A model generated the notes under the pieces. It did not search any database. It was not told the DNA's origin and saw nothing but the letters and a program-made list of their open reading frames with translations. Of a DNA stretch of 64,000 nt, positions 36-44,238 are shown one piece after another. The translations under genes and the position numbers were made by a program. Positions within the stretch are counted from its first letter, which is position 1. Each line of letters opens with the position of its first letter. Source of the DNA: Nitratireductor indicus C115 (GTDB lineage Bacteria > Pseudomonadota > Alphaproteobacteria > Rhizobiales > Rhizobiaceae); NCBI RefSeq assembly GCF_000300515.1, contig NZ_AMSI01000002.1, forward strand, positions 310,001 through 374,000. The letters run 5' to 3'.

Positions 36-3000
36 TCAGAAGCGAATGCCCAGTCGCGCATCGAGGCCGTTCGTGCTCGAACCCGACCCGAACTCGCCAT
101 TATAGCTTAAGCCGAGCGTCGCAGTTTCGGTCACCTTCATGTCGAGGCCGAGCTGCAGGACGACAGTGTCTCTGGCAATGGGAACGCCGGTGATCATATA
201 GGCTTCGCTCCCGGAGAAGGCGAATTGCGAGACCGGATCGACGTCGCCGAAAGCATGACGCCAGCCCAAGGTTCCACTGGCCGTCGCCTGGATTCCACCA
301 AGCATGAGATCGGACGAGGCCCGCAATCCCAGCGTGGTGAACGCGGTGTTGAGCGTTTGGCTTGCACTGGTGAGGGCCGCTGCCCCACCTTCTTCCGTGA
401 AGCCATCGGTACGCAGGTTGACATAGGCAAGGTTCGCAAACGGCTCAAAAGACGCTGTACCCCTGTCGAAACGGTAACCGAGTTCTCCATACGCCTGGAA
501 GCTCCCGGCGTCATAATCAGCGGTCAGCTGCTCATTGAAGCCCGGAAACGCGACCGAACGGCTGGTCGACAATTTGTGCCACGTATAAGAAAGCCCCGAA
601 CGGAACGACAGCGCGCCCCACTGCGAACCACCGTAAAGACCAAGATGATAGTTATCGCTGTCGCCGGAGGATGCACGCGCATCCGCATCGAATGTCGAAC
701 GGCTGTACCCCGCGAAGAGACCAGCTCTCCAGTCTCCGAGCGGCGCGTCGATACCCGTTATGAAACCACCGGTCGAGACGTCCAGATCGCCTACATTGGC
801 ACCGCCTTCCATATCGCTCCAGGAGCCGAAAGCCTGCCCCCATGCCGCAAGGCCTAGCGCGCTTGCTGTATCAAATTTAGGGCCATCCTCCCCGTAAGCA
901 AGAACCGGCAGGCTTGCTGCCCCAACATCGCCGAAAGCAGAGCGGATACGGTTGTTGGTGACGTCCCGCACATACTGGCTACCAAGAAGGAGCGCAGTCT
1001 GGGCAGAAGCGTGAACCTCACCAGAAAGCTGTTCAAACGCAACTTGAGCTTCGCCAGCGCTCAATAAAAGCAGCCTGTTGTAAAGCAATAGCGATGAGCC
1101 GCTCTGCTCCAGTGTGTTGAGCGCGACGGCAACATTGCGTTGGTTGTCCGTCCGGGCAACACGGTCAAAAAGGCCTGCTCCAGGCCCACCGGGGTCACCA
1201 GGGTCGCCGGGATCACCGGGATCACCCGGATCGCCAGGGTCACCAGGATCGCCGGGGCCACCAGGATCGCCGGGGCCACCGGCGTCCGCAACAGAGATCG
1301 TTAAATCGACCTCATTCGCTCCATGAACGAGATCGACATCGAGAAAGGCGGACTTCGAGATCGCCTCTGCGAACTCACCGGAAATGCCCTTCTCCGCGGT
1401 CAGGATCGTATATGTCTGGCCGTTTTGATAACTTGTGGCGGCATCGAGCGCCGTGACCTCCACATTGACACCATTGCCGATCGTGACCTTGCCGCCCCGA
1501 TCGAAGACATCCAGCGACGATTCATAGCCAATATCCTTGACGACGATCTTGTCGCTTGTGCCGTCGCCGAGAACATCCACCTCGAAGACCGAGTTGTCAT
1601 GAAAGGCGAGTGAGCCCATGACGGTCAATGTGCCGGCTGAGTTGTCGCCCGGCGCAATGCGCGCATTCCTTTCAAGCACGACGGAACCAACGGTTCCAGA
1701 GCCACCCAGCGTTCCGAACAATGTCGGATCACGGTCGGCATATACGTTGTTCGATTCCTCTCCCCAGACCTCGATCCGGTTCGAATAACGGGCGAACTTC
1801 TCTCCGGGCTCACCCTCGACCTCATAAATTCGGCCGACGGTGCCGTCGACGATCAACGTGCCGCCCCTGACCTCAAACGTGGTTTCGGTTTCCCGATCAG
1901 CCCGCGCATCGAGATCTGTCGTGTCCATATCGCTTTTCAGCACGAGCCGCGCGTCTGCACCGTCGACGACAACAGCCAGATCATCCCGTTTGGTTGTGTA
2001 GAATTCGGACAGATCGCCATCGATGGTGGTCTCCCCGGAGTAGCTTGCGATGAAGCCTCCGCCTGAGAGCCGATTGGCGAAAAGGTAGCCGGTATCGGTG
2101 TGATTGAAATAAATACCGGCGCCATCGAGAGTTATCGTTGCGTCCGCATTGATAGAACCGGCAGCGCTCGCCTCGCCCAGTTCCAACCAACCGTCGGCGC
2201 TTTCCTTCGCCCCGCCGATAATCAGCGACTTGCGGAGATTGAACTGGCCTCCGACTTCCAGACGCCCGTTTCCGCTGAGAGCCACGGCTCCGCTCGCATT
2301 GAGATTGCCGGAGACATCGAACACGCTGTTCCGGCCATCGACCGTTAGATAGGCAAGGAGCCCCACACCGGCTGTGTCGGCGCTCACCATGCCGCCGTTT
2401 TCCACGCGCATGCCGCCTTGCGATGAAATCGCAAGGATTGGCGTTTCCAATAAACCGCCGTCGGAAACCGTGATGTATCCCGTATTGAACGCGCCTTCGA
2501 GATCGATCCGCTCGCCGGCATGCAGCACCGAGCCTGCGCCGGCGATGGTCGTGTTCTCGCCGAGCTTCAGGGTCTGGGTTTCCACTTTGCCGCCATTCTC
2601 GATGGCAAAACCATTTCGGTTGATCATGGCGCCGCTATTGAGCCACTTCGATCCAGAGCCGCTGACCAGGATCGAGCTCCCCTGCCCGCCGAGCGAAACA
2701 TAGTTCGTGGAGATAAGCCCCCCATCCCGGATCGCAATGGGGTCGACGATCGCCGTGCTGCTGCTCAAGCCTCGGAGTTCATCAGCCTCCAGCACGGAGC
2801 CCTGGCCCGAAACGACGATATGGGCTTCGCCGCCCGACCCGACCGCATTGCTGATGCGAACCGTATCGGCGAAGACCTTACCGCCGTTTTCGATGATCAG
2901 GGTACCATTGCCATAGCCGGTGCCGGTCGCACCGATGCCGAGAACGCCCGCATAGGCTATGGGGGCATCTCCTGTCAGACGCCATTCAGCACCAGCGCCG

Positions 3001-3362
3001 GAAACCCTTACCGTACCTGTATTGGGTGCACTGCTAGAGCCGCCATAGCCGATAAATCCTGCTCCGCTATAGACTTTCGAACCAATGATCGACAATTCGG
3101 CGGGCACTCCGTTTACCCTGCCGACATACAATTCACCATTGATGGCATGTTGCTCCGCCCAGGTGGCCGCCCCCTGAGCAAGTGTGCAATCGGTGATGGC
3201 CGGATTGCTGCCGAGGCGGGTATCGCAGACGACCTGCGCATGCGCTTCACCGAATCCGACCGGCGCAACGCCCGAGAACAGAACGCTCAATCCGGCGTAT
3301 CCCAGAGCCGTGGAATTCCGGAGCCATTTCTTCAGCTCGAAAAATTTCCTGTTAGAAATCAA
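36..3362 (-). CDS. Type V autotransporter, outer membrane beta-barrel
   Basis: Protein of 1108 residues with a long N-terminal signal peptide (about residues 1-43, ending in AHA-Q). The passenger has repeated GTLIIENGGKV / GMRVENGGMV-type motifs, as in beta-helical autotransporter passengers. A Gly-Asp-Pro collagen-like stretch at about residues 692-727 separates it from the C-terminal barrel (about 850-1108), which ends in an aromatic residue (RF), as outer membrane barrels do. The family exports its passenger through its own barrel to the cell surface, often for adhesion. The reading frame starts with TTG at 3362, with GGAG eight bases upstream. It is host DNA just beyond the left prophage end. 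Ligand unknown. Confidence 0.9.
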   Translation of the reverse strand: MISNRKFFELKKWLRNSTALGYAGLSVLFSGVAPVGFGEAHAQVVCDTRLGSNPAITDCTLAQGAATWAEQHAINGELYVGRVNGVPAELSIIGSKVYSGAGFIGYGGSSSAPNTGTVRVSGAGAEWRLTGDAPIAYAGVLGIGATGTGYGNGTLIIENGGKVFADTVRISNAVGSGGEAHIVVSGQGSVLEADELRGLSSSTAIVDPIAIRDGGLISTNYVSLGGQGSSILVSGSGSKWLNSGAMINRNGFAIENGGKVETQTLKLGENTTIAGAGSVLHAGERIDLEGAFNTGYITVSDGGLLETPILAISSQGGMRVENGGMVSADTAGVGLLAYLTVDGRNSVFDVSGNLNASGAVALSGNGRLEVGGQFNLRKSLIIGGAKESADGWLELGEASAAGSINADATITLDGAGIYFNHTDTGYLFANRLSGGGFIASYSGETTIDGDLSEFYTTKRDDLAVVVDGADARLVLKSDMDTTDLDARADRETETTFEVRGGTLIVDGTVGRIYEVEGEPGEKFARYSNRIEVWGEESNNVYADRDPTLFGTLGGSGTVGSVVLERNARIAPGDNSAGTLTVMGSLAFHDNSVFEVDVLGDGTSDKIVVKDIGYESSLDVFDRGGKVTIGNGVNVEVTALDAATSYQNGQTYTILTAEKGISGEFAEAISKSAFLDVDLVHGANEVDLTISVADAGGPGDPGGPGDPGDPGDPGDPGDPGDPGDPGGPGAGLFDRVARTDNQRNVAVALNTLEQSGSSLLLYNRLLLLSAGEAQVAFEQLSGEVHASAQTALLLGSQYVRDVTNNRIRSAFGDVGAASLPVLAYGEDGPKFDTASALGLAAWGQAFGSWSDMEGGANVGDLDVSTGGFITGIDAPLGDWRAGLFAGYSRSTFDADARASSGDSDNYHLGLYGGSQWGALSFRSGLSYTWHKLSTSRSVAFPGFNEQLTADYDAGSFQAYGELGYRFDRGTASFEPFANLAYVNLRTDGFTEEGGAAALTSASQTLNTAFTTLGLRASSDLMLGGIQATASGTLGWRHAFGDVDPVSQFAFSGSEAYMITGVPIARDTVVLQLGLDMKVTETATLGLSYNGEFGSGSSTNGLDARLGIRF

Positions 3363-36577: not shown

Positions 36578-36699
36578 AATTTGGGAATAGAACCCCATCG
36601 CGGCCAAGCTGAGATCGCAGATCGATCCGCTTGGCCTGGGCCTGATGGCGCTGCTCACCCGGAGTGCGGCTCTGTCAGGTCTCCTGTTTCGATTGCGTA

Positions 36700-37362
36700 T
36701 TACGATTTGCTGAGATGTGCAAGATCGAGCTCAACGGGCACGATGCGACCGAAAATCATCACCTCGACCAGAGCGCGGCCCTCGTGTGGACCTTCTCCGA
36801 TTTTGATCATCTTACCCGGGTAGCCGGAGAAAGGGCCGCCCTCGACCATCACTTTTTCGCCCTTCGCAAATACTGCTCCTGCATTCTGTGGCACGTCGCG
36901 GAGCGTTGCCAGTTCTGCCTTTATTTTCAATATGCTGGCATCATCAATGAAGAAGGGGCTTTCACCGTCTCCCAGCACTGAGAGTGTATGCTTGATCATC
37001 GCTAAGCCCGCCCATGCCTCGGCTATGTTGGGCACCTTCACGAAAATGTAGTTGGGCCATGCAATCACCCAAATCTGCTTTCCTGGGCTGCCGGTGCGCC
37101 TCCCGCTCATCGTTCGATCCGCCTTTCGAAGCGGAAGCCAATGTTCGATGAGCGCTGCAGACAGAGATTTATCCACATCATTCTCACGGTTCGGCGCCAC
37201 TTTGATGATTGCCCATCGCTTTAGCGGGCCATCCATACCAGCAGCGGCAAGCAATGCCTGCTGCCGTCGGCTCACCTTCATCTGCTTGTCGGATTCAGCG
37301 TAGCACCTATCGAGATTGATATTATCCGCCTCACTCAGCTGCTTGCCGCGCGCCATCATCAT
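36700..37362 (-). CDS. NusG-like transcription antitermination protein
   Basis: 220 residues. After a 45-residue extension the NusG N-domain appears: RWAIIKVAPNRENDVDKSLS and IWVIAWPNYIFVKVPN (the I/V-F-V block). The C-terminal KOW domain is FAKGEKVMVEGGPFSGYPGK and MIFGRIVPVELDLAHL. NusG paralogues such as RfaH and LoaP bind RNA polymerase and suppress termination in specific operons. This one is encoded last in the early operon and just before the late operon, the position of an antiterminator such as lambda Q. Its start overlaps the initiator gene by 32 bases. Confidence 0.82.
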   Translation of the reverse strand: MMMARGKQLSEADNINLDRCYAESDKQMKVSRRQQALLAAAGMDGPLKRWAIIKVAPNRENDVDKSLSAALIEHWLPLRKADRTMSGRRTGSPGKQIWVIAWPNYIFVKVPNIAEAWAGLAMIKHTLSVLGDGESPFFIDDASILKIKAELATLRDVPQNAGAVFAKGEKVMVEGGPFSGYPGKMIKIGEGPHEGRALVEVMIFGRIVPVELDLAHLSKS

Positions 37363-38440
37363 TGCCTTCTGCCTCGTTTGCCCTGATTGCCGCCTCGAAC
37401 TCGCTCAACCCTCCCGGCCCGCCTGCCGGGAAGAACACCACCGGTTGCTTTCCCGGATCGGGAACCCAGAGCCATCCACGACGCTCAAATTCCAAGCGCC
37501 AAGTCTCGAACTCCCTCGATCCGACCTGCACCGGCTCGAACGCCGAGCCGATGTCATGCCATCGCTTGGCGAACCGATGCCCCTGGCGCAACCGCGCTTT
37601 CTGGTACAGCGTGGACACCAGCGGCCACCCCTTTTCGGCCTCACCTTCTGCCGTCAGTAGGTGAGCCAGTATCCAGGCGCACCATGGCTTGCTGAAAGGC
37701 GTCGCATGTTCGTTGAAGGGCTGCGCGGCTGGCGCCGGAAGCTTCTCCCAACGTCTTTCCGCGAGGTAGACACCGAAGGTACAGATCGTGGTGCGCCCGC
37801 CGACATTGGCGTGAGCAAGATAGTCACTGATCCTCTCGACCGCAGTCTGCCGCTCCTCAGGCGTCAGGCCGAAAGCTGCCGACAGAGCCTTGGGTTCGCT
37901 ATCGGTCACGTAAGTTGGCCACTTCGGATGGACACGCTTGAGCCATCGCTCGACCTGCTTTCTGTCTTCCAATTGCCCGCGCGATTTTTCTTCTTCGTTT
38001 TGTGGGGTCGTTAAGGAGGGGTCGTTAATAGGTGCCGGTTCTGAACCGGCAGGGGGTGCCGGCTCAGAACCGGCAGGGGGTGCCGATATACCGGCAGGGG
38101 TGCCGACCTGTCGGCAGGGGGTATCCGCCTCTTCAACCGTCGCGACGGAAGGGTGCACGGGATCAAGAACAACGCGATAGACATGTGCACTATCGCGCCC
38201 GCTGTCACTCGCCTGCACGAAGCGCTCAAGATATCCGGCCTTGACCAGCCGCTCGATCGCATCAAATACGGTCGAGCGTGCGCAGCCCATCTCGTCGGCC
38301 ATCTTCACCTGGCTGCGGCGGCACCAGCCCAGATCATCGGTATGACGGCCCAACACACAGAGCACCTGCAAATCACGCGGCTTTAGAGATCGATCGGTTG
38401 CCGCTCTTGCCGGGATAATTGAAAGACGAGGTCCGCTCAT
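37331..38440 (-). CDS. Replication initiator-like protein with winged helix
   Basis: 369 residues. The N-terminal winged helix (LKPRDLQVLCVLGRHTDDLG, MADEMGCARSTVFDAIERLV) is like that of phage replication proteins. A low-complexity linker with PAGSEPAP repeats (about 108-136) is encoded by DNA iterons at 38031..38118. The C-terminal domain (WLKRVHPKWPTYVTDSEPKA onward) is helical. This resembles lambda O: a DNA-binding N-terminus, origin repeats inside the gene, and a C-terminus that would recruit helicase. No phage helicase is seen, so host DnaB is the likely partner. It is the penultimate gene of the early operon. Confidence 0.72.
   Translation of the reverse strand: MSGPRLSIIPARAATDRSLKPRDLQVLCVLGRHTDDLGWCRRSQVKMADEMGCARSTVFDAIERLVKAGYLERFVQASDSGRDSAHVYRVVLDPVHPSVATVEEADTPCRQVGTPAGISAPPAGSEPAPPAGSEPAPINDPSLTTPQNEEEKSRGQLEDRKQVERWLKRVHPKWPTYVTDSEPKALSAAFGLTPEERQTAVERISDYLAHANVGGRTTICTFGVYLAERRWEKLPAPAAQPFNEHATPFSKPWCAWILAHLLTAEGEAEKGWPLVSTLYQKARLRQGHRFAKRWHDIGSAFEPVQVGSREFETWRLEFERRGWLWVPDPGKQPVVFFPAGGPGGLSEFEAAIRANEAEGNDDGARQAAE
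38031..38118. repeat. Four dyad-containing iterons, candidate phage origin
   Basis: Four consecutive repeats start with GGTGCC at 38031, 38055, 38079 and 38099 (units of 24, 24, 20 and 20 bases). Each holds a dyad: GCCGGTTCTGAACCGGC, GCCGGCTCAGAACCGGC, GCCGATATACCGGC and GCCGACCTGTCGGC. Two GGGGTCGTTAA repeats and an AT-rich stretch (37981-38030) lie next to them. All are inside the initiator gene, as the lambda origin lies inside gene O. Confidence 0.72.
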
Positions 38441-39132
38441 TCTGCCGCCTCCACCATCATGGCTTCAAGCGCACGATCGCCCCACTGGGCGGCCATGGCG
38501 TCCGCCATTCCGGGAAAGAAGCGTGACCGCTCCTTTCCCCGATCCTTGCCGGGCGACATGCGCCAGACGCGGTTCCAGGCACGCCATTCGTCGCTGCCCT
38601 TCTCTGGTTCCGGCAGGCGGTCAGTCTCGGTCAGTGGCAACAGGCCGCGCAGATACCAGCCCGTTGCCTTGTATTCGGGATGACCGAACCAGAATGGCTG
38701 CACCATGTGCGGCGCCGGCAGGTCCGCAGGCATCCGGTCCCGGGCGAGATCATGCATTTCCGGATTTTCAATTGCCACGCGCTCAATCGGCGCGCGCCAG
38801 CACACCGTGAAGAGGTCGACACCTTCTTCGAACTCCGTTTTCAGGTCGTTCCAGCTGCGACCGCGCGGCAGCTTTTTGGGAGGCGTCATCTTGCCCGGCC
38901 CTGACAGCCAACGTCTTCCCGAGCGACATAATCGCGTGCAAGGCGGATGCGCCACGATCAGCAGATCCCAGCCATCCGTCAGCACGGGCCGCACATCACC
39001 GACGATATGCCTGTTGCTGCCATCTTCGGCCGGCAACAGGTCGCAAGACCAGGCATCGTGCCCGTGTTTGGAAAAGGCCCGCCGCACAATCCCCGAATAT
39101 TCGCATGCCACAAGCACGCGCATGCCGCTCAT
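38437..39132 (-). CDS. C5-cytosine methyltransferase-like protein
   Basis: 231 residues from ATG 39132 (overlap ATGA with the gene before). Seen motifs: MRVLVACEYSGIVRRAF (motif I-like), IVAHPPCTRLCRSG (motif IV, PPC with catalytic Cys) and VAIENPEMHD (motif VI-like ENP). The protein is short for a DNA C5 methyltransferase and a target-recognition domain is not obvious. Phage proteins of this type are annotated as DNA cytosine methyltransferases; protection of phage DNA from host restriction is the likely role. Confidence 0.75.
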   Translation of the reverse strand: MSGMRVLVACEYSGIVRRAFSKHGHDAWSCDLLPAEDGSNRHIVGDVRPVLTDGWDLLIVAHPPCTRLCRSGRRWLSGPGKMTPPKKLPRGRSWNDLKTEFEEGVDLFTVCWRAPIERVAIENPEMHDLARDRMPADLPAPHMVQPFWFGHPEYKATGWYLRGLLPLTETDRLPEPEKGSDEWRAWNRVWRMSPGKDRGKERSRFFPGMADAMAAQWGDRALEAMMVEAAE

Positions 39133-39677
39133 CCCGCCTTCCTCCATGCCTGAAAATCCTGTCGCAGCGCGCGCCATCTGTCGGCGGCGTCGGTGTTCTG
39201 GTTGAGTTCGCTTCGCGAAGTGATGCCGAGTACGGAGCGCAGCTTCTGGGCCGCGCGTTCATCCGTGAGCGGGCGTTCAAGCCCGTGGCGCTGTTCGAGA
39301 AAGGCCTTGAAGGCAGGCTCCGCGCATTTCATCGCGGCTTCGGCGGCATAGTCTGGCGCGGCCCCTTCCCGCCGGCTGCCCTGGCCAGTTTCCGCGTTTG
39401 GCGGCGTCTTGCGCAATGCCTCTATCGCGCGATCGAGAAGGGCGAGAAGAAAGCCCACCATGGCAGGCGAAGCCGCCATGAACTCGACTTCCTCGAAGGT
39501 CGCCGCGTCGCAGCGCATGAGCGTGATCAACGCGCCATGCTCATCCTCGCCGACGATCATCTCGCCCATATCGTCGGCAGCACGCCGCCAATTGCCCGGC
39601 GCGACGGCGGCAAGCCTGGCGCGAATGCGGCGCAGCTGCTCGGCCTCGATCTGGCGCGGGTTCGGAGCGGCGTTCAT
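39129..39677 (-). CDS. Hypothetical early phage protein
   Basis: 182 residues. Contains GNWRRAADDMGEMIVGEDEH followed by a helical region (MVGFLLALLDRAIEALRKTP) and a C-terminal helix-rich part. Similar small proteins with the 'GEMIVGEDE...A..I..M' pattern are common in rhizobial prophages near replication genes. Function unknown; overlapped by four bases on each side. Confidence 0.65.
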   Translation of the reverse strand: MNAAPNPRQIEAEQLRRIRARLAAVAPGNWRRAADDMGEMIVGEDEHGALITLMRCDAATFEEVEFMAASPAMVGFLLALLDRAIEALRKTPPNAETGQGSRREGAAPDYAAEAAMKCAEPAFKAFLEQRHGLERPLTDERAAQKLRSVLGITSRSELNQNTDAADRWRALRQDFQAWRKAG

Positions 39678-41238: not shown

Positions 41239-41477
41239 TCCGGCATCTCCTTCAAGCGCGCTCGAAGAAGGAAATTCGTCCAGGCCAAGTCGAGTGCGGC
41301 CTTTGCCGCGTGCTCGTCTTTCGCCGTGCCGGACGGGCCGGAGAGATTGTCTCCGACAAACATGCGCCAACGCCACTTCTCGGCACCGATCGGCGGGAAG
41401 ACCGCACCGACTTCCACGCAACCGGAGAAGGCGGTGTGACGACCATGGCGATAGGAAGATTTCTTCCACCGGATCAT
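41235..41477 (-). CDS. Hypothetical early phage protein
   Basis: 80 residues, MIRWKKSSYRHGRHTAFSGC and KWRWRMFVGDNLSGPSGTAK, then helix EHAAKAALDLAWTNFLLRAR. The aromatic/basic N-terminal half and C-terminal helix resemble small rhizobial prophage proteins of unknown role. Overlaps its neighbours by four bases. Confidence 0.6.
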   Translation of the reverse strand: MIRWKKSSYRHGRHTAFSGCVEVGAVFPPIGAEKWRWRMFVGDNLSGPSGTAKDEHAAKAALDLAWTNFLLRARLKEMPE

Positions 41478-42610
41478 TCCGCCGCCTCCCCCGCCTCATA
41501 TCCCCATGCGTCCCATCCGGGCCGGGGTGAACGGCAGAAAAGCTCCAGCCTGGCCATGGCCGGATAAAGCCGCTCGATTGTCTCGGCATAGAATTCCGGC
41601 TTGGCGCTGTGTCGCCCCTTGCGCTCGCGGTGCACCGTCTCTGGCTGCGATCCGGGCAGCGGTGCTGCAACATCGCCGCGCCGACCGATCAAAAGCAGTT
41701 CGTGCCGGTCGCGGCCCCAATATCCGGTTCCGGCGACTTCCTTGTCCCAAATCCAGTGGTGCACATAGGTGAAGCCACAGCCTTCCATCACGCGCAAGGC
41801 ATCCGGCAACATGGGGTTTGTCGCCCAAAGGAAGAGCACGGCAGGCCAGTCGCCGCCGATAAGCCGCGTCATCAAGGCGACAATCTCATCCGTGGGCATG
41901 GTGGGATAATGGTTCTCGGCGCTCTTCTCGCGCCCGGTCACCTCAGAGCGCACGCCATACCGCCACGGAGGATCCGCATAGTAGACGGGATAGGCCCGCT
42001 CGACCGCTTCAGGCGCAGACGCCCGCCCCTTCTCGGCCACAATATCCATATGCGCCAGCCGCACGGCGTGCCGCGCCTTCTGGTTTTCCGCCCGCAAATC
42101 CTTGGCGACCTTCATCAGCTCGCGGCGGTTCTCCGTTTCGGGCATGAATGCGGTTTTGATGGTCTTGCGCGCCGGCTGCTTCACGCCGTCCCGGCCCTCG
42201 ACCTCATCATGGTGGGGAATTTCCCCACCCTTCACCAGGCGCTTGCGAACGGCGCTCACCGTCTTGTGGTCGACGCCCACCATGGCCGCGATGGCGCGTG
42301 AGGAGATCGACAGCGTATCCCGCAATTGATCCTCGATCACCGCCTTCTTCTGCGCGCTGGAAAGGTGCCGGCGCGAAACGTTCAGCTCCCGCGCAAGTTT
42401 GCGCTTTTCAGCTTCCGTCAGACCCTTGCGCACGAAGCGCGGCCAATCCACCAGGCCAAGGCTCTCGCAGATGGCGACGCGATGGTGTCCGTCCAGGATT
42501 TCGCCGTTCTCGTCATACTCGACAGGCACAAGCACGCCGTGCTCCACGATGGACGCTTCCAGCGCGGCATATTCTTCGGCGGTCAGGGCTGGCAGGAGCT
42601 GATATTTCAT
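41474..42610 (-). CDS. ParB-like domain fused to MT-A70 adenine methyltransferase
   Basis: 378 residues. The ParB/Srx-like N-domain has LDGHHRVAI (DGHHR at 40-44), then an HTH-like segment SSRAIAAMVGVDHKTVSAVR (103-122), and the MT-A70 domain from about 205 with catalytic DPPW at 213-216 and FLWATNPMLPDALRVM. It probably methylates adenine N6 in DNA, with the N-terminal part choosing the site. Such fusions occur in phage DNA. The HTH and the DGHHR motif recall KorB/ParB proteins that bind palindromic operators. Its stop overlaps the 80-residue gene and its start the GapR-like gene. Confidence 0.85.
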   Translation of the reverse strand: MKYQLLPALTAEEYAALEASIVEHGVLVPVEYDENGEILDGHHRVAICESLGLVDWPRFVRKGLTEAEKRKLARELNVSRRHLSSAQKKAVIEDQLRDTLSISSRAIAAMVGVDHKTVSAVRKRLVKGGEIPHHDEVEGRDGVKQPARKTIKTAFMPETENRRELMKVAKDLRAENQKARHAVRLAHMDIVAEKGRASAPEAVERAYPVYYADPPWRYGVRSEVTGREKSAENHYPTMPTDEIVALMTRLIGGDWPAVLFLWATNPMLPDALRVMEGCGFTYVHHWIWDKEVAGTGYWGRDRHELLLIGRRGDVAAPLPGSQPETVHRERKGRHSAKPEFYAETIERLYPAMARLELFCRSPRPGWDAWGYEAGEAAE

Positions 42611-42939
42611 CAGTCCATCCCCAGCGCGGCCTTGTAGAGATCAAGCACGGCCTCGGCCTCATGACGTGCCGCCTGATCCATCTTGCGCAGCTTCACCAGT
42701 GCGCGCACGGCCTTGGTGTCGAACCCCATGGCCTTGCACTCGGCATAGATTTCCTTGCGGTCATCGGAGAGCGCGTCGATATCCTCCTGCACCCGCTCTA
42801 TCCGCTCGATGAAGGCGCGCAGCTGTCCCGCCGCGATGGTCTGCGGGCCTTCTGCCTCATCGGCCTCCGCCGCCATTTTCTTGCCCGGGCGCTCACGTGC
42901 GGGGCCGCGCGGCTCATAGGGATCGTAGGCGTCCATCAC
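42610..42939 (-). CDS. GapR-like (DUF2312) DNA-binding protein
   Basis: 109 residues. After an acidic/basic N-terminal tail the GapR core follows: LRAFIERIERVQEDIDALSD, KEIYAECKAMGFDTKAVRAL and KLRKMDQAARHEAEAVLDLY. GapR in Caulobacter is an essential nucleoid protein that binds overtwisted DNA and stimulates topoisomerases ahead of replication and transcription. The phage copy, encoded beside the sliding clamp, may serve phage replication or compete with the host protein. Its stop overlaps the ParB-methyltransferase start by one base. Confidence 0.85.
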   Translation of the reverse strand: MMDAYDPYEPRGPARERPGKKMAAEADEAEGPQTIAAGQLRAFIERIERVQEDIDALSDDRKEIYAECKAMGFDTKAVRALVKLRKMDQAARHEAEAVLDLYKAALGMD

Positions 42940-44078
42940 GCAGCCGCCTGGGCATGCGTCCAGTCCTTCAGCGTCGAAAGCGCAAGGTCCGAGGAGGCCC
43001 CGCCGCGCATCGGCATCATCACGGCATAGGGCGCGCCGGCCCCGCGCAGCAGCGCCGCGCTACCCGGGCTGGAAACCATCAGCCGCACCACGTCGTCATG
43101 GTCGAACTGGGCCAGCGCCGCGCCGAGATAGCGCGCATTGAACTCGATCGATCCCGGATCCTTGACGCCGATGGTCGCCGTTTCGGTGAGGTATTCCCGC
43201 GCCAGCACTGGCAGGTCGATCGTCGTGTAGCCGCACACGACCAGCCCGTCGGCATCATAGGCAATGCCAACGCCATGCCTACGGAGGCCGGCACAGGCGA
43301 GAACGTCATGCATTCGGTTGATCGCCCCGGCGAGCACGCGGCGGTCTGCGCGGATCTCGATCGCACCGGCAGTGTCCGGCACCACACGCCGCCAGTCCGG
43401 ATAATTGCCGTCGATCAGCTTGGCGGTCAGCGTCATGCCTGGCAGCGTGAAGCGCATCGCCTGGCGCTTGGTGTCCAGCCGCACCGCCTTTGCCGGCGCG
43501 AGCGCGGCGAGCAGCGCCACGGTGTTGGTGGTGATGATCGGCCGGCCCATCTCTGCCGCCGAGAGCGCGACGGGGAAAACGCCCATGCGATGGCCGTCCG
43601 TCGCCACCATGTGGCCCTCGTCGAGGCAGATCCCGTTCAGGTAGTAGCGCGTGTCCTCATAGGAAACGAACGCCTTGCAGAAGCGCAGGCCATCGCGAAA
43701 CGCCTCCCCGTCGACGGCGATTTCGGTCGAAAATTCGCCGCTGGGATCGAGCGCTTCCCATTCGACGGTCGGCAGGTCATAGCGTCCGCCGGGAAAGATC
43801 AGCGTCGCCCCCTGCGCCCCGGCCTCGATCGAGATATTTGCATCCCGCCCGACATGCCGCACCAGCGCCGCGAGCGGGCGAAGCAGGATAGCCGCCCTGC
43901 CCTTCGCCCGCGTGCACGCCAGTTGCACCGACAGATACTCGTCGAGATTGGTGCCGGAGAGGGTAGCACCGTCGAACTGCACGGTTTCGAGCAGCGGCGC
44001 GGTCGCGCGGCGCGGCACCACCTTCGACATGAGGGATAACGCGCCCTTGAGCGCGCCGGCTGTCGTCTCAAGTTTCAT
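42936..44078 (-). CDS. Phage DNA polymerase sliding clamp (DnaN-like)
   Basis: 380 residues from ATG 44078 (MKLETTAGALKGALSLMSKV). Contains GTNLDEYLSVQLACTRAKGR, HMVATDGHRMGVFPVALSAA and LIDGNYPDWRRVVPDTAG, all signature blocks of bacterial beta clamps, and a C-terminal end near VMMPMR. The ring tethers the polymerase to DNA. No phage polymerase is seen here, so it presumably works with host Pol III or replaces the host clamp. Coupled to the GapR-like gene by overlap. Confidence 0.9.
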   Translation of the reverse strand: MKLETTAGALKGALSLMSKVVPRRATAPLLETVQFDGATLSGTNLDEYLSVQLACTRAKGRAAILLRPLAALVRHVGRDANISIEAGAQGATLIFPGGRYDLPTVEWEALDPSGEFSTEIAVDGEAFRDGLRFCKAFVSYEDTRYYLNGICLDEGHMVATDGHRMGVFPVALSAAEMGRPIITTNTVALLAALAPAKAVRLDTKRQAMRFTLPGMTLTAKLIDGNYPDWRRVVPDTAGAIEIRADRRVLAGAINRMHDVLACAGLRRHGVGIAYDADGLVVCGYTTIDLPVLAREYLTETATIGVKDPGSIEFNARYLGAALAQFDHDDVVRLMVSSPGSAALLRGAGAPYAVMMPMRGGASSDLALSTLKDWTHAQAAA

Positions 44079-44238
44079 GGCAGTTTCCTTTCCGGTTTTC
44101 CGCGCGCGCCCGCTTGAGCGCCGCGTCGTGAAACGGGTTGCTGTGTTCGACATCCATCGCAGCCACTTCATCGGGAAAGCGATCGGCAAGGCCCCATCCG
44201 GGCATGCGCAGGTTCGGGCTGGGCTGATTGCTGCGCAT
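44068..44238 (-). CDS. Small hypothetical early protein
   Basis: 56 residues from ATG 44238 (MRSNQPSPNLRMPGWGLADR). Its end overlaps the clamp start by eleven bases and its start overlaps the small membrane protein stop by one base. Polar with a basic tail; unknown. Confidence 0.5.
   Translation of the reverse strand: MRSNQPSPNLRMPGWGLADRFPDEVAAMDVEHSNPFHDAALKRARAENRKGNCHET

What the first reader, a model, noticed from the sequence alone, without database searches (positions are those of the whole stretch)
38031..38118. Lambda-like replication origin inside the initiator gene
Four repeats of about 20-24 bases, each with its own dyad (arms of 4-8 bp), lie inside the initiator-like gene with an AT-rich block and two GGGGTCGTTAA repeats beside them. 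Position and structure repeat the lambda ori/gene O design, but the sequences are unrelated. The coding consequence is a PAGSEPAP repeat linker, so the DNA, not the protein, is likely what is conserved.
Basis: partly seen in the sequence, partly recalled or inferred. Interest (0 to 1): 0.75.

Follow-up and report, generated by a model that had tools for sequence, protein, structure and literature searches.

The report
Phage replication origin inside initiator gene
A bacterial virus appears to carry the starting point for copying its DNA inside the gene for the protein that starts the copying, and in its relatives one amino acid of that protein changes in step with the DNA repeats it is thought to read.

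Summary
Four tandem dyads lie at 38033-38116 inside gene 37331..38440(-), a PHROG_270 replication initiator of a prophage, probably rhizobial, beside two 11-bp repeats. They encode a disordered linker between a winged-helix and a C-terminal domain. With the protein held fixed, 1 of 2000 synonymous shuffles reaches the repeat score.

In 114 of 145 non-redundant homologues a linker dyad array beats synonymous shuffling. Dyads occur in all three reading frames. Array sequence follows the winged-helix domain, not the C-terminal domain. Residue 60 of the recognition helix predicts base 5 of the half-site in 123 of 126 genes (Arg: TGCCC; Asn: TGCCA; others: TGCCG); the rule was read from these data and independent switches are few. 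Beyond the array most homologues have locally weak duplex with 13-14-bp repeats and a GAGAGA motif; the window gene shows this only weakly.

Best reading: a lambda-like, iteron-type phage origin with exchangeable initiator/iteron cassettes. The design is known from lambda O and the plasmid pSK41. This family's origin and its apparent one-residue specificity switch were not found described in the searches made. Binding and initiation are untested.

The parts
37331..38440 (-). initiator gene, 369 aa, PHROG_270 replication initiation protein; origin inside
38162..38428 (-). winged helix-turn-helix domain (residues 5-93)
   Evidence: HTH_36; AlphaFold2 model with helices 21-32, 44-51, 55-68 and strands 71-75, 86-90
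38237..38278 (-). recognition helix (residues 55-68); residue 60 (codon 38261-38263) is the apparent specificity residue
38101..38116 (-). iteron 1 (first in gene direction): TGCCGACAGGTCGGCA
38081..38096 (-). iteron 2: TGCCGGTATATCGGCA
38057..38075 (-). iteron 3: TGCCGGTTCTGAGCCGGCA
38033..38051 (-). iteron 4: TGCCGGTTCAGAACCGGCA
38003..38143 (-). coding stretch for the low-confidence (presumably disordered) inter-domain linker, residues about 100-146
   Evidence: block means of pLDDT 48-57 for residues 101-150 except the last block, 78 for 151-160
38018..38028 (-). putative unwinding repeat, copy 1: TTAACGACCCC
   Evidence: spacing of AAC[GC] in homologues peaks at 13-14 bp
38004..38014 (-). 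putative unwinding repeat, copy 2: TTAACGACCCC
37995..38001 (-). degenerate copy 3: AAAACGA
37984..38023 (-). weakest 40-bp duplex of the gene
37978..37996 (-). purine tract then CGCGCG (GAAGAAGAAAAATCGCGCG), at the place of the GAGAGA motif of most homologues
37331..38002 (-). C-terminal domain (residues 147-369) with stop, presumed replisome-recruiting part
   Evidence: mostly high-confidence fold; function inferred

Best explanation
This is most likely the replication origin of a temperate phage, probably of Rhizobiales, built into the gene of its own initiator. The N-terminal winged-helix domain binds the half-sites TGCCGRY / RYCGGCA, so the four dyads are iterons. Recognition-helix residue 60 reads or gates the fifth base. 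Bound initiators strain the adjacent weak duplex with its 13-14-bp repeats, which melts. The C-terminal domain brings in the host replisome. The linker peptide is essentially a by-product of the iterons. Winged helix and iterons are exchanged between phages as one cassette. Shown by sequence: the array, selection on DNA rather than protein, co-variation with residue 60, the weak block in most homologues, cassette exchange. Inferred: binding, melting, helicase recruitment and actual initiation.
For: Protein: best PHROG is 270, 'replication initiation protein', over nearly its full length. Dyads exceed protein-constrained nulls in the window gene and in 116 of 145 homologues (at most 10 of 200 shuffles), 114 of them at the linker. 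Frames vary. Residue 60 predicts half-site base 5 in 123 of 126 genes and carries 1.06 of 1.149 bits; the next best of 26 residues carries 0.45. Residue 60 lies in the recognition helix of the model. Arrays share a repeated 6-mer in 463 of 472 scorable pairs alike in winged helix but not in C-domain, against 10 of 35 in the opposite case and 14 of 227 with neither alike (pairs not independent). L108 and L145 have C-domains 83% identical over 280 aa, no BLASTP match between winged helices, and different iterons. The 42 nt before GAGAGA are weaker than 95% of same-protein draws in 107 of 134 genes. GAGAGA lies in codons 86-230 of 119 of 145 genes against a mean of 20.3 and a maximum of 32 in 100 rounds of synonymous shuffling. 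Lambda O shows the same layout: weakest 40 bp at nt 437-476, right after its iterons at 349-433.
Against: No binding, unwinding or replication data. In the window gene the weak block is no weaker than its protein explains (722 of 2000), and the GAGAGA motif is absent (26 of 145 genes lack it). GC skew of the prophage shows no turn near 38 kb. Independent residue-60 switches are few: 5 supported pairs, 4.7 on average concordant and 0 discordant, median p 0.0625 on the C-domain tree, and 1 supported pair on the N-domain tree. The rule was read from the same data; only the 11 genes added later are a test, all obey it, and 10 of them carry Arg60. L029 (Ala60) has TGTCG-type half-sites and so falls outside the rule; it and five other genes with too few TGCC half-sites were not counted. 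29 of 145 genes do not pass the shuffle test; seven of these keep PA-type peptide units. Unit length varies (16, 19, 20 bp), odd for one rigid dimer site.
Confidence: 0.88

Rival explanations
1. Autoregulatory operator: the initiator's winged helix binds the dyads to repress or pause transcription of its own operon, and the origin lies elsewhere.
For: Many of the best fold matches of this winged helix are transcription regulators. Covariation shows who probably binds, not what for.
Against: The array begins about 320 nt inside the gene, next to duplex that is weak in most homologues and has 13-14-bp repeats. The strict unit occurs nowhere else in the 64-kb window. The protein family is annotated as replication initiator.
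Confidence: 0.07
2. RNA hairpins: the dyads act in the mRNA, for instance with the NusG-like antiterminator encoded next door.
For: A NusG-like gene follows (also annotated). Arm position 7 shows left-right pairing (odds ratio 4.2), and G-T mismatches at position 6 outnumber A-C (121 to 69).
Against: At arm position 6 only 216 of 440 units pair, with no left-right association (p 0.19); A-C breaks are common. Half-site base 5 follows a recognition-helix residue. The only Rfam match up to E 1 in 36600-39200 is below its gathering score and outside the array.
Confidence: 0.03
3. Protein-level repeat: selection keeps a PAGSEPAP-type flexible linker and the DNA repeats are a by-product.
For: Most units lie in one frame (335 of 440), the window linker has a clean 8-residue repeat, and seven genes that fail the shuffle test keep two or three PA-type units.
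Against: 105 of 440 units use the other two frames. Synonymous shuffles rarely reach the observed repeats in 116 of 145 genes and in the window gene. Linker residues change with half-site type.
Confidence: 0.02

Closest known systems
Phage lambda O / ori-lambda and Stx-phage origins
   Same: Origin in the middle of the initiator gene; 4-6 iterons of 18-19 bp, each an inverted repeat; an AT-rich block beside them (PMC7466680 passages; annotated lambda iterons); weakest duplex right after the iterons.
   Different: Iterons are unrelated, G+C-rich and of variable half-site spacing; the unwinding block is only mildly AT-rich and carries 13-14-bp repeats; no detectable homology to lambda O in a direct profile comparison; a NusG-like gene, not a P-like gene, follows.
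RepA_N plasmid initiator pSK41 Rep and the chimeric pPR9 Rep
   Different: No RepA_N domain hit; a phage, probably of Gram-negative hosts; C-terminal domain not shown to be related.
repABC plasmid p42d (RepC)
   Same: Rhizobial replicon with oriV inside the initiator gene, in or near an A+T-rich region (PMC3155836 passages).
   Different: The paper contrasts repC with plasmids that have recognizable iterons; here iterons are prominent and the protein family differs.
Sinorhizobium phages phi2LM21 and phi3LM21 initiators
   Same: phi2LM21_p26 is a homologue (42%) named putative replication initiation protein, with TGCCG dyads in its linker.
   Different: A term search of the paper's main text found no 'iteron', 'repeat' or 'origin'.

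Membership tests
PHROG_270 replication initiation protein | profile match over most of the protein | tested here: met
   E 1.1e-37, residues 8-356 on profile 34-364 of 383
Lambda O / ori-lambda | four or more iterons, each a dyad, inside the initiator gene | tested here: met
   four dyads at 38033-38116
Lambda O / ori-lambda | weak AT-rich block beside the iterons on the 3' side | tested here: met
   weakest 40 bp of the gene at 37984-38023; mild, and in excess of protein constraint in 107 of 134 homologues but not in the window gene
Lambda O / ori-lambda | initiator is a homologue of lambda O | tested here: inconclusive
   profile comparison with lambda O: probability 0.1%; best PHROG is 270, lambda's is 277; both give hits to O-like families 345, 391 and 678, weak for the window protein
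Lambda O / ori-lambda | gene P-type helicase loader next door | tested here: not met
   next gene downstream is NusG-like; other genes of the prophage were not all tested
Lambda O / ori-lambda | initiator binds the iterons and opens DNA | not testable with these tools
   needs purified protein
RepA_N plasmid initiators | RepA_N domain | tested here: not met
   not among the 12 Pfam matches up to E 1; HTH_36 is
RepA_N plasmid initiators | Rep boxes centrally inside rep, encoding the linker | tested here: met
   layout only: array encodes part of the low-confidence linker, residues about 100-146
repABC (RepC) | RepC homology | tested here: not met
   no RepC family among Pfam hits or NCBIfam hits up to E 1

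The most novel reading that the evidence does not exclude
The family follows a one-residue specificity code. Recognition-helix residue 60 sets base 5 of the iteron half-sites (Arg to TGCCC, Asn to TGCCA, small or acidic residues to TGCCG). Because the iterons sit in the same gene, one recombination or a concerted change of the array creates a new, mutually compatible replicon type. The gene is a self-contained, exchangeable origin-specificity cassette upstream of a shared unwinding block and C-terminal domain.
Probability: 0.7. Interest if true: 0.7.

Novelty: new variant of a known kind. Interest (0 to 1): 0.6.

Why it matters
How an initiator and its origin change specificity together without losing function is hard to study, because natural intermediates are few. 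This family offers over a hundred natural pairs, each in one gene, and an apparent single-residue determinant. It can be tested with natural proteins and natural arrays alone. It also gives a DNA signature for locating origins in related prophages, and shows an origin acting as the recombination joint between two protein domains.

Tried and rejected
GC skew of the prophage (5343-51575): no turn at the array, uninformative. The 5-mer inverted-pair test does not detect the known lambda iterons (146 of 500 shuffles reach the observed value), so its failures in 29 of 145 homologues are weak evidence of absence. AGA makes up 121 of 228 Arg codons at the GAGAGA motif and 175 of 5182 elsewhere, but this is circular because the motif was located by its letters; the synonymous shuffle replaces it. 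Lambda O as a sequence relative: no match. RNA element: no Rfam family at its gathering score. Sampling of C-terminal relatives in viral contigs failed because the alignment had no conserved stretch. Genome searches: 15 of 397 genomes of the order (single protein), 3 of 385 of the class, one of them the window's own (alignment), 40 of 301 relatives, 14 of 297 around another centre; queries and limits differ, so rates are not comparable. Fold search says only 'winged helix' for residues 6-94; the C-terminal domain was not searched alone.

The claim that this origin is undescribed rests on nine searches (listings only) and passages of six papers, of one of them also a full section; subscription journals are mostly missing.

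Data left out: loci L001-L004; in the sets open frames under 150 codons; genes with N (1); near-duplicates (282 to 169); in the residue-60 table 6 of 132 genes with fewer than 4 TGCC half-sites (L023 Arg60, L029 Ala60 with TGTCG-type sites, L031, L032, L037 Lys60, L258 Asn60 with 2) and 37 of 169 genes whose helix the search pattern did not match, a few of which (L267, L270) look like Arg60 with TGCCC by eye. The printed label '<=5/200' is wrong: the script counted at most 10 of 200; 2 of the 116 passing genes (L083, L113) have their best signal outside the linker.

Full report
WHAT IS THERE. The gene 37331..38440 on the minus strand encodes 369 aa. Its best PHROG is 270, 'replication initiation protein' (E 1.1e-37), with an N-terminal HTH_36 domain. 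It lies in a prophage that IMG/VR holds as a 46,233-bp contig with an identical gene, which maps to about 5343-51575 of the window if collinear. Near it lie a NusG-like gene just downstream, an MT-A70 methyltransferase, a DNA polymerase III beta-like protein and a gpA-type terminase. Read along the gene, the array is TGCCGACAGGTCGGCA cccc TGCCGGTATATCGGCA ccccc TGCCGGTTCTGAGCCGGCA ccccc TGCCGGTTCAGAACCGGCA, then TTAACGACCCC twice and AAAACGA, then GAAGAAGAAAAATCGCGCG.

MORE THAN CHANCE. The loose dyad pattern is over-represented in the window (11 against a mean of 2.58, 0 of 100 shuffles), and the strict unit occurs only in the array. With protein and codon usage fixed, 1 of 2000 shuffles of the window gene reaches the score. 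Redrawing only codons 105-141 gives 4 dyads in 8 of 5000. On its own the window is therefore significant but not overwhelming, because the linker peptide repeats too.

HOMOLOGUES. Relatives came from phage records, viral contigs and genomes; searches kept the best 80 of 151 and of 135. A first non-redundant set had 145 genes. In 69 of 145 none of 200 synonymous shuffles reached the observed number of matched inverted half-sites, and in 116 of 145 at most 10 did; in 114 of these 116 the signal lies at codons 95-165. Of the 29 that fail, many carry other winged-helix types with repeats that the test does not suit; seven keep two or three PA-type peptide units with less regular dyads. A larger set had 169 genes out of 282 with an open frame. 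In the 126 genes whose helix the pattern matched and that hold at least four TGCC half-sites there are 440 units, mostly 3 or 4 per gene, of 16 bp (190), 19 bp (182) or 20 bp (53). They start in codon frame 0, 1 or 2 in 64, 41 and 335 cases. The same DNA element is thus read as CRYVGT, VPTGGQ or PAGPESA, as expected if DNA is what is kept.

WHO READS IT. Residue 60 lies inside helix 55-68, the recognition helix of the predicted winged helix (mean pLDDT 83.6). In the 126 genes, Arg60 goes with TGCCC in 35 of 36, Asn60 with TGCCA in 3 of 3, and Asp, Ala, Glu, Ser, Leu or Thr with TGCCG in 85 of 86; one Gly60 gene has a mixed array. Of 26 residues scanned, residue 60 carries 1.06 of 1.149 bits and the next best 0.45. 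The exceptions are L095 and L096 (mixed arrays) and L135 (Arg60, TGCCT). L029 (Ala60, TGTCG-type sites) was not counted because it has no TGCC half-site. The pairing Arg-guanine and Asn-adenine fits common protein-DNA contacts (recalled). The rule was read from the first 115 genes; the 11 added afterwards all obey it, but 10 of them carry Arg60. On a C-domain tree of 123 genes, residue class changes 7 times, base 10 times, and the combined state 10 times, so by parsimony every residue change can coincide with a base change. Of five supported independent pairs, 4.7 on average go the same way and none the other way, median p 0.0625. On an N-domain tree without the recognition helix there is one supported pair. 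The covariation is very tight, but the number of independent switches is small.

CASSETTE EXCHANGE. Of 476 gene pairs with C-domains at least 50% identical over at least 150 aa, 35 have winged helices with no BLASTP match at E 0.001. The clearest is L108/L145: C-domains 83% identical over 280 aa, TGCCG dyads in one and GGTGTCAC-type repeats in the other. Conversely, the window and L047 share 91% of the winged helix but 29% of the C-domain. Where winged helices are alike and C-domains not (535 pairs, 472 scorable), arrays share a repeated 6-mer in 463 of 472; in the opposite case in 10 of 35; with neither alike in 14 of 227. These pairs are not independent of each other. Other winged-helix types (most of the 37 of 169 genes that the helix pattern does not match) carry other repeats, for instance GTGTCCAGAAA in L133, CCGGCAAAT in L138 and GGTGAA in L148.

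UNWINDING BLOCK. A GAGAGA motif lies in codons 86-230 of 119 of 145 genes, against a mean of 20.3 and a maximum of 32 in 100 rounds of synonymous shuffling. The 40 bp before it rank among the weakest 5% of their gene in 97 of 119. In the larger set the 42 nt before the motif are weaker than 95% of same-protein draws in 107 of 134. AAC[GC] repeats there are spaced mostly 13 or 14 bp (59 and 69 of the spacings; 32 at 12, 23 at 15), which is not a codon period. The window gene lacks GAGAGA, and its block is not weaker than its protein explains (722 of 2000), although it is the weakest 40 bp of the gene. In lambda O the weakest 40 bp also directly follow the iterons.

DNA OR RNA. Arm position 6 pairs in 216 of 440 units with no left-right association (p 0.19), while position 7 does associate (odds ratio 4.2, p 2e-12). 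Together with the residue-60 rule this favours independent protein half-sites TGCC[N]RY over an RNA stem, without excluding some role of pairing.

MECHANISM. Most likely initiators bind the eight half-sites, probably as dimers on each dyad with tolerance for 16- to 20-bp units, wrap or bend the array, and melt the block at about 37984-38028. The C-terminal domain then recruits host replication proteins. Binding, melting and recruitment are inferences from lambda and pSK41 (PMC7466680 passages; PMC5703833 section 14).

KNOWN OR NEW. Origins inside initiator genes with iterons are known in lambdoid phages and RepA_N plasmids, and pPR9 shows a natural swap of NTD plus origin whose new NTD is HTH_36. 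For this family, the phi2LM21 paper names the initiator, but a term search of its main text finds no 'iteron', 'repeat' or 'origin', and the searches listed under Tried and rejected found no description. I file it as a new variant of a known kind.

Noticed in passing
window 36700-37362 (-): NusG/UpxY-like antiterminator gene directly downstream of the initiator; the same order is annotated in phi2LM21, phi3LM21 and Nsp-JY10. Why an antiterminator follows the origin gene is unexplained.
   Followed up: no
window 42936-44189 (-): DNA polymerase III beta (sliding clamp)-like protein, Pfam central domain E 1.1e-9, inside the prophage.
   Followed up: partly
window 41474-42610 (-): MT-A70 methyltransferase domain behind an N-terminal part that reads like ParB (by eye).
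   Followed up: no
L006 (PP395642.1): A phage recorded from Nostoc carries an initiator of this family with TGCCG dyads; the host label may reflect an accompanying heterotroph.
   Followed up: no
L267, L269, L270: Initiators lacking GAGAGA have a GGTGGT- or GTAGTAGT-like stretch and then CGCG repeats at about the same place, perhaps another unwinding block.
   Followed up: no
window 36-3362 (-): Autotransporter-like protein (by eye) outside the prophage with a GDPGDPG tandem repeat (1187-1282).
   Followed up: no
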